From Candidatus Endomicrobiellum pyrsonymphae (GTDB taxonomy: Bacteria > Elusimicrobiota > Endomicrobiia > Endomicrobiales > Endomicrobiaceae): DNA of 34,744 nucleotides. The first letter of the stretch is position 1, and every line of letters starts with the position of its first letter. This document shows, piece by piece, positions 2,085-34,281 of this stretch. The notes beneath the pieces were generated by a model. It saw only the letters and a program-made list of their open reading frames with translations, had not been told where the DNA came from and did no database searches. Position numbers and translations under genes: made by a program. The stretch spans positions 1-34,744 of the forward strand of contig JAIXMY010000003.1 in assembly GCA_020328045.1 (NCBI GenBank), in the 5' to 3' direction.

Positions 2085-2189
2085 TGAATTATCCTAAAAT
2101 CTGTATTTTGCCGATTGTCCACCAATTAATGCAGTCGATGGTAAACTTCGTTTGTCTCACGAAAAAAACGAATCCATGTTGTCGTCAAT

Positions 2190-2237
2190 TCCCCTTTCTA
2201 TGAAAGAGGTGGCATGCCAAGAGGCATTGACGGGGGG
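2190..2237 (+). repeat. Short palindromic intergenic repeat (hairpin module, family R2)
   Basis: TCCCCTTTCTATGAAAGAGGTGGCATGCCAAGAGGCATTGACGGGG; similar modules at ~16415-16456, ~22970-23010, ~23101-23135, ~31336-31385. Confidence 0.7.
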
Positions 2238-2240
2238 TAT

Positions 2241-2418
2241 TGTTCCTTAAAAACAAGTATAATTTAAGTGTACAGGGGTGTTGGAAGATTGAACGGGTGG
2301 GGCAAAGCCCGTAGTCATCAGGATCTCCAACACCACAAGGTAAAAGCTTGATGAGGTTGCAAATGTGCAAACTTTAGTTGAAAACAAGAAGCTAATATCA
2401 ACTAAAAGGATGCACAAA
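2241..2418 (+). ncRNA. Putative IS110-type bridge RNA / structured leader upstream of transposase remnant
   Basis: TATAAT at 2258-2263; perfect 9-bp stem GGTGTTGGA (2277-2285)/TCCAACACC (2326-2334) with inner ACGGG/CCCGT stem; second perfect 9-bp stem TTTAGTTGA (2373-2381)/TCAACTAAA (2398-2406); immediately 5' of an IS110-type ATG at 2419; partial copy at 23012-23101. Confidence 0.45.
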
Positions 2419-2502
2419 ATGCCAAAAACCTTATACACTGAATTTGTAGGCATCGATGTATCAGAAAACAAGTTGAACGTTTATGAAACAAAAAACAATC
2501 AG
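2419..2502 (+). pseudogene. IS110-family transposase, N-terminal remnant
   Basis: MPKTLYTEFVGIDVSENKLNVYETKNNQ matches the start of IS110 DEDD transposases; frame then runs into repeat sequence. Confidence 0.75.
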
Positions 2503-2630
2503 TTTTTCAAGGACTTCTTTCACCACTTTTTTCAGTGGGTTGATGAGGGAGGGGCAAAGCCTGACGGAAACAGAGAGAGTATAGTGCAAGCTACCTCCCA
2601 CACAAAATACCTTTCATGCGTTTGTCGTGA
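2503..2630 (+). repeat. Composite dispersed repeat (family R2) containing one arm of a perfect 43-bp inverted repeat
   Basis: 2503-2545 TTTTTCAAGGACTTCTTTCACCACTTTTTTCAGTGGGTTGATG is identical to the reverse complement of 34239-34281; followed by GGGGCAAAGCC and ATACCTTTCATGCGTTTGTCGTG, also found at 21562-21660 on the opposite strand. Confidence 0.8.
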
Positions 2631-20017: not shown

Positions 20018-20507
20018 TTTTTTCCCTCTTTGCGGTAAAAATTCCCTTCAATTTAGCAAACGAATCCACACCATAAATATATTTGCAGTGATTTAAAATT
20101 ATCGAGACTTGCGACGTTTGCGAGTCGCGACAAGCTAGACAACAACTATGCTGGATTGCTTCGTCATTTCATTCCTCGCAAAGACACCGCTGATGCAATT
20201 TAAAGCTATTTGACTATATATGTCCAACAGAACACTTCTCTGCAAGTCCACTGACTCATAAATAGAGTCACCTTAACTCGCGTCGTCTTATCCTTGAGGT
20301 AGTGGTTTTTACATTTCACCGTTACGATTTTCGTTTTTCTTTAATAGTAGCCAAAATGCTTCCGAATCTTGCGGAATTTTCTGTTAGGACCAAAAACTTT
20401 CATAGGATACTACATATAGTATGAATGATTTGTATTAGGCACAACCTATACTACACTACTAAAAATAAAATGTCAATACAAAGTTATGAAATAAATGTGA
20501 AACTTTT

Positions 20508-22870: not shown

Positions 22871-23010
22871 TTCGTCTGCCACACCTCGATTAAAACATTC
22901 GAGGGCAGACTGCTAAGGAAGAACGACCTATTTTTAAAAAAAAGAGGAATAAAGACACGGCATTAAATTCCCTTTTCTCTGAAAGAGGGGGTATGTCAAA
23001 GACATTGCCT
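22871..23010 (+). repeat. Composite dispersed repeat R2
   Basis: CGTCTGCCACACCTCGATTAAAACATTCGAGGGCAGACTGCTAAGGAAGAACGACC...TCTGAAAGAGGGGGTATGTCAAAGACATTG. Confidence 0.85.
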
Positions 23011-23011
23011 A

Positions 23012-23101
23012 GAACGTTCCCTAAAAACGAGTATAATAAAGTGTATAAGAGTGTTGGAATATCGAATGGGGTAGGGGGCAAAAGCCCGTCGTCATCAGGA
23101 T
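23012..23101 (+). ncRNA. Orphan, 3'-truncated copy of the putative IS110 leader/bridge RNA
   Basis: CGTTCCCTAAAAACGAGTATAATAAAGTGTATAAGAGTGTTGGAATATCGAATGGGGTAGGGGGCAAAAGCCCGTCGTCATCAGGAT aligns with 2241-2324; no transposase ORF follows. Confidence 0.45.
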
Positions 23102-34118: not shown

Positions 34119-34238
34119 AGTACAAGTAAATTTACAATTGTTATTGCCACAGACAAATGTATACAAAGTGTTTTATGATGAGGTGTGATCCACGGCACCT
34201 GAACTCAATACCTTGACAGACTTTGCCTGCCATCCTTG

Positions 34239-34281
34239 CATCAACCCACTGAAAAAAGTGGTGAAAGAAGTCCTTGAAAAA
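34239..34281 (-). repeat. Right arm of perfect 43-bp inverted repeat (partner 2503-2545)
   Basis: CATCAACCCACTGAAAAAAGTGGTGAAAGAAGTCCTTGAAAAA is the exact reverse complement of 2503-2545. Confidence 0.95.

What the first reader, a model, noticed from the sequence alone, without database searches (positions are those of the whole stretch)
2241..2502. IS110 remnant preserving a structured leader that may be a bridge RNA
Seen: upstream of the IS110-like start MPKTLYTEFVGIDVSENKLNVY there is a TATAAT box, a perfect 9-bp stem (2277-2285/2326-2334) enclosing a ~40-nt loop with an inner hairpin, and a second perfect 9-bp stem (2373-2381/2398-2406) ending just before the ATG. Known: IS110-group elements encode a ~170-nt bridge RNA with two internal guide loops in the left-end non-coding region. 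Inference: this leader is that RNA, kept although the transposase body is gone.
Basis: partly seen in the sequence, partly recalled or inferred. Interest (0 to 1): 0.72.

Follow-up and report, generated by a model that had tools for sequence, protein, structure and literature searches.

The report
Deleted IS110 copy with damaged bridge-RNA
A termite-gut symbiont genome carries a shrunken copy of a jumping gene that still contains most of the guide RNA such elements use to choose where to insert, but this copy has lost the part of the guide that would recognise the element's own DNA; it is a new example of a known RNA-guided system.

Summary
The stems and TATAAT box are real, and the leader is the left end of an IS110-group element. 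The window copy (2239-2544, about 304 bp) is an internal deletion: left end, 28 transposase codons, then the right end at 2503, between AT cores.

Over 50 left-end copies in this and other genomes of the genus (termite-symbiont Endomicrobiia) support a bridge-RNA origin. The target-loop stem is conserved with compensatory changes. The loop's 5' guide matches each copy's own left flank far above chance (z = 11). The circle junction rebuilds TTGATT-17-TATAAT. Empty target repeats show an (A)T core. Right-target guide support is weaker (p = 0.02).

The second 9-bp stem is not a family feature (38% of pairs kept in relatives, against 89% for stem 1). It appears because this copy alone lost about 18 nt: the 3' arm of the donor-loop hairpin plus the right donor guide GAACAA. 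So the bridge RNA here is damaged, not preserved.

Many copies sit in two dispersed repeat families, as known IS110s do. The window copy's guide resembles its own flank, but in a shifted register. No RNA was measured. Best reading: a decaying new member of a known kind.

The parts
2189..2238 (+). Left half of the dispersed target repeat (type A: TTCCCCTTTC..GGCATTGACGGGGGGT) into which the element inserted
   Evidence: Same repeat without the element at C23; same left flank type at C1, C84, C95, C65
2239..2240 (.). Core AT (minimally T) at the left junction
   Evidence: Comparison of empty and occupied target repeats in the same genome
2241..2418 (+). Left end (LE), non-coding, carrying the bridge-RNA-like sequence
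   Evidence: Homology begins at this point in more than 50 unrelated places
2258..2263 (+). -10 box TATAAT; in the excised circle paired with a TTGATT -35 formed across the RE-LE junction
   Evidence: TTGATT-17-TATAAT in 36 of 54 LEs, 16-nt spacer in 4
2277..2334 (+). Target-binding-loop stem-loop: outer stem 2277-2285/2326-2334, inner stem GGGC 2300-2303 / GCCC 2307-2310
   Evidence: Conserved with compensatory changes
2288..2299 (+). Left target guide (ATTGAACGGGTG)
   Evidence: Family-wide match to own left flank; for this copy 4/8 in register, or 9/9 with a 1-nt bulge in a shifted register
2311..2319 (+). Presumed right target guide (GTAGTCATC)
   Evidence: Position by family; genome-level test p = 0.022, weak
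2339..2399 (+). Donor-binding-loop remnant: outer stem GGTAAAAGCTT 2339-2349 / AAGCTAATATC 2389-2399, presumed left donor guide GCTTGATGAGG 2346-2356; lost about 18 nt at 2379/2380 (3' arm of inner hairpin and right donor guide GAACAAT)
   Evidence: Alignment A1; inner hairpin covaries in relatives; outer stem assigned by eye
2419..2502 (+). First 28 codons of the IS110 recombinase
   Evidence: Continues into the recombinase in L002 and L032; L032 N-terminus matches PF01548 at 24.7 bits, below the 29-bit cut-off, E 2e-5
2503..2544 (+). Right end (RE) of the same element family, fused to codon 28 by an internal deletion; ends in GGGTTG + core AT 2543-2544
   Evidence: Same sequence follows recombinase C-termini in C25, C39, C45, C119 and others, then the flank changes
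2545..2580 (+). Right half of the type A target repeat

Best explanation
The segment 2239-2544 is an internally deleted IS110-group insertion sequence sitting in a dispersed repeat of an Endomicrobiia (termite flagellate endosymbiont) genome. Its left end encoded a bridge RNA. In intact relatives the excised circle joins right end to left end, which makes a promoter (TTGATT-17-TATAAT). The RNA's first loop pairs with the target and its second loop with the element's own ends, and a DEDD recombinase exchanges strands at an (A)T core. In this copy most of the recombinase gene is gone and a deletion of about 18 nt has removed the right donor guide, so it most likely makes no working bridge RNA. 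Both terminal half-sites remain, so at most it could be moved in trans by another copy. Shown by sequence: homology, both ends, deletions, target-repeat context, family-wide left-guide match, promoter geometry. Inferred: transcription, pairing, recombination and loss of function.
For: More than 50 homologous LEs with a fixed left edge; RE identified after recombinase C-termini, PF02371 E 6e-14; empty versus filled target repeats; LTG versus own flank z = 11, swap p < 5e-5; covarying target-loop stem and donor-loop hairpin; promoter across the circle junction in 36 of 54; RDG deletion seen only in this copy. Published mechanism for comparison: PMC11208160.
Against: No RNA data. RTG-RT support is weak (p = 0.022, and 0.13 in a less related subset). 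The window copy's own LTG match is out of the usual register. G013 copies, numerous in their genome, lack part of the presumed left donor guide, so that assignment may be wrong. No intact recombinase of this family was found in any genome searched. Copies sharing a guide within a genome are not independent, so z = 11 overstates; by guide class p = 0.011.
Confidence: 0.88

Rival explanations
1. The RNA of this copy still works in part: it could bind recombinase made elsewhere and the target repeat, acting as a competitor, or be a non-autonomous partner moved in trans.
For: Target loop and both terminal half-sites are intact; Durrant et al. show that a bridge RNA can be supplied in trans to a short donor (PMC11208160).
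Against: Right donor guide lost; this deletion junction was found once in the genome, so no sign that the derivative multiplied; no intact recombinase found, though contigs break inside the element.
Confidence: 0.08
2. The reader's second stem (2373-2381/2398-2406) is a real functional structure, for example one that controls translation of the recombinase.
For: Perfect 9 bp just before the ATG; L002, L081 and the L090/L096 group keep 6 of 9 pairs.
Against: On average 38% of its pairs form in 24 relatives against 89% for stem 1; it competes with a donor-loop hairpin that has compensatory changes.
Confidence: 0.05
3. The leader is only a structured untranslated region of the recombinase gene, not a guide RNA.
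For: It lies directly upstream of the ATG; no transcript is known.
Against: Loop sequence follows the insertion site; a promoter is rebuilt at the circle junction; the element retains the two-loop order of published bridge RNAs.
Confidence: 0.06

Closest known systems
IS621 and the IS110 group with LE-encoded bridge RNA (Durrant et al. 2024, PMC11208160)
   Same: Bridge-RNA-like sequence in the LE; target loop first, donor loop second; 5' side of the target loop matches the left target; promoter rebuilt at the circle junction; dispersed repeats as targets.
   Different: Core is (A)T rather than CT; no room for a 5' stem-loop before the target loop if the start is near 2270; this copy lacks the right donor guide and nearly all of the recombinase. 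No RNA or activity shown.
IS110/IS1111 'seekRNA' elements (PMC11187229; seen as title and abstract only)
   Same: Non-coding region directs site choice by a DEDD transposase.
   Different: Not compared in detail; the present element has its RNA in the LE, as the IS110 rather than the IS1111 group does according to PMC11208160.
MITECca01, a miniature element derived from ISCca4 in a Cardinium endosymbiont (PMC9769881)
   Same: Short derivative with both ends and almost no transposase, in an endosymbiont.
   Different: Parent is IS110 rather than IS982; no terminal inverted repeats used; no evidence that this exact derivative multiplied.

Membership tests
IS110 group element | DEDD (PF01548) plus Transposase_20 (PF02371) recombinase | tested here: inconclusive
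   Window copy keeps 28 codons only, with no Pfam match. Family: PF02371 E 6e-14 in own genome and PF01548 over the cut-off in genomes of the genus.
IS110 group element | Long non-coding LE, short RE | tested here: met
   LE 178 nt, RE about 40 nt.
IS110 group element | Scarless insertion with short core present at both junctions | tested here: met
   Empty and filled repeats, (A)T at both sides; pooled from different copies, not one copy's own empty site.
Bridge RNA | Two stem-loops with internal loops, in order target then donor | tested here: met
   Family: yes, with compensatory changes. Window copy: first loop intact, second truncated.
Bridge RNA | Left target guide matches the left target | tested here: met
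   Family z = 11; by guide class p = 0.011. Window copy alone: inconclusive.
Bridge RNA | Right target guide pairs with the right target | tested here: inconclusive
   p = 0.022 over ten genomes, 0.13 in seven less related ones.
Bridge RNA | Right donor guide pairs with the LE start | tested here: not met
   Not met in the window copy: GAACAAT, reverse complement of ATTGTTC, is deleted. Present by eye in most relatives, with an A/T change on both sides in the G009/G036 lineage and a mismatch in the G010/G013 lineage.
Bridge RNA | Promoter rebuilt across the circle junction | tested here: met
   TTGATT-17-TATAAT in 36 of 54; window copy has a 16-nt spacer.
Bridge RNA | Transcribed, bound by the recombinase, directs recombination | not testable with these tools
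   Needs RNA-seq and binding or recombination assays.
Miniature (MITE-like) derivative | Short, lacks transposase, keeps both ends | tested here: met
   About 304 bp, LE and RE present.
Miniature (MITE-like) derivative | Present in several copies | tested here: not met
   The LE-RE junction at 2502/2503 was found only in the window, so I do not file it as a MITE.

The most novel reading that the evidence does not exclude
A 304-bp derivative that keeps the target guides but has lost its donor guide acts in trans as a decoy or regulator of its parent IS, holding the recombinase on genomic repeats without a donor.
Probability: 0.04. Interest if true: 0.7.

Novelty: new member of a known kind. Interest (0 to 1): 0.34.

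Why it matters
It adds a bridge-RNA IS family in flagellate endosymbionts of termites. Within one genus the target guide exists in about two dozen versions that tend to follow the insertion sites, so it is a small natural record of guide re-programming, including spread into two repeat families. It also shows that a neat stem in a single copy can be the scar of a deletion.

Tried and rejected
Rfam search at gathering and permissive thresholds: no bridge-RNA family match; HEARO at E 0.95 is chance. RNAalifold on the full MAFFT alignment recovered only the target-loop stem because the loops misalign; realigning the two halves separately gave both (three sequences were left out because my split pattern missed them, and L041, L070 and L081 were split at the wrong place). 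PF01548 in the own genome: none, probably because contigs break inside this repeated element. Two other IS110-type genes in the genus (G004 C46, G010 C102) were not tied to this left end and set aside. Pairing left and right ends of the same copy in the own genome was impossible because contigs end inside the element. The right-end list for the RTG test was picked by hand from pattern matches, so that test is rough. No paper on bridge RNAs of Endomicrobiia or on internally deleted, bridge-RNA-bearing derivatives turned up in the held library; the library is not complete.

Full report
What is there. The window is one contig of a 1.25-Mb draft genome in 122 contigs. Relatives of the family's recombinase in named records are almost all Endomicrobiia, the closest being Candidatus Endomicrobiellum dinenymphae DS12 at 86% identity, so the host is most likely a termite-flagellate endosymbiont of that group.

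Boundaries. A search of the own genome with 2100-2660 found 36 matches. Left-end matches start at the same point (about 2239) in unrelated places. A separate set matches only from 2503 onward. Reading those contigs shows that 2503-2544 follows the recombinase 3' end (VAVMRKLLVIINN, stop, then CTTTTTTCAGTGGGTTGAT), after which the sequence changes from copy to copy. So the window element is left end + 28 codons + right end, about 304 bp. Complete but decayed relatives are about 1.2 kb (L032, L081/L151).

Target. Unoccupied repeats read TTGCGAGGGATGAAATGACGAAGCAATC. Copies read TTGCGAGGGA|TTGTTCC on the left (L005, L006) and GGGTTGAT|GAAATGACGAAGC on the right (C45), so a T, or AT, is shared. 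The window copy lies in a different repeat, GGCATTGACGGGGGGT[AT]...[AT]GAGGGAGGGGCAAAGCCTGACGG; an unoccupied relative is at C23. Copies at C1, C84, C95 and C65 have the same left flank type, and C87, C89 and window 34217-34281 the same right flank type.

Structure. Aligning the two loops separately gives the target-loop stem with its inner GGGC/GCCC stem and a donor-loop hairpin GCAAAC/GTTTGC. Several pairs change on both sides: TA to CG, GC to TA, CG to TA, AT to TA. The donor-loop outer stem GGTA..AGCTT/AAGCT..TACC was assigned by eye.

Guides. The 5' side of the first loop was compared with each copy's own left flank. For 52 copies the sum of matches is 259, against 177 +/- 7.4 at other T-followed positions of the same flanks (z = 11; none of 20,000 draws) and 208 +/- 6.9 when flanks are swapped among copies (p < 5e-5). 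By guide class (24 classes) the effect is weaker but present (p = 0.011). Copies within a genome share guides and some loci look orthologous, so the 52 are not all independent. Perfect cases include TCAAACACA (L038) and GCGAGAAA (L004). The right guide, tested by genome, gives p = 0.022, and 0.13 in a less related subset. For the window copy itself the guide matches the flank 4 of 8 in the usual register. With a 1-nt bulge it matches 9 of 9 about five bases further out, the best among 28 guides and among all flanks, a score reached by 0.24% of random windows but by 2% of shuffles of the flank. Part of that match (ATTGA) is loop sequence common to the family, so I treat it as suggestive only.

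Promoter. Joining the right-end consensus GGGTTGA to each left end gives TTGATT, 17 nt, TATAAT in 36 of 54 copies and 16 nt in four; the window copy has 16. This mirrors the published circle-junction promoter (PMC11208160). A start a few bases after 2263 leaves no room for a 5' stem-loop before the target loop, a difference from IS621.

Damage. Against L002 the window copy lacks TGCAGCATGTGAACAATT at 2379/2380. This holds the 3' arm of the donor hairpin and GAACAAT, the reverse complement of the left-end start ATTGTTC. The other full-length copies in the alignment keep the guide region (L046 has lost the hairpin but keeps AAACA). Another copy in the genome (C84) has the opposite damage: it lost the target loop and kept the donor loop.

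Conclusion. This is an ordinary, decaying, internally deleted IS110-group element whose family carries a bridge RNA. Transcription and function were not tested by anything here.

Noticed in passing
window 22966-23101 (+): A second left-end copy of the same family, cut off inside the target loop, again next to a type A repeat.
   Followed up: partly
window 34217-34281 (-): A right-end remnant of the same family flanked by the right half of a type A repeat.
   Followed up: partly
window 20154-20181 (-): An unoccupied type B target repeat, TTGCGAGGAATGAAATGACGAAGCAATC.
   Followed up: partly
L003/L010 (own genome C84): A copy that lost the target loop but kept the donor loop, the reverse of the window copy's damage.
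   Followed up: no
L035/L123 (G034 C8): Left end fused to what looks like the recombinase 3' part, followed by several repeats of CAGTGGGTTGATGA-type sequence; right-end-like motif in an unexplained repeat array.
   Followed up: no
L155 (Bacteroidia bacterium MS499-82, BNTU01000281.1): A 53%-identical recombinase fragment on a 1.5-kb contig binned as Bacteroidia: transfer, or a mis-binned Endomicrobiia contig.
   Followed up: no
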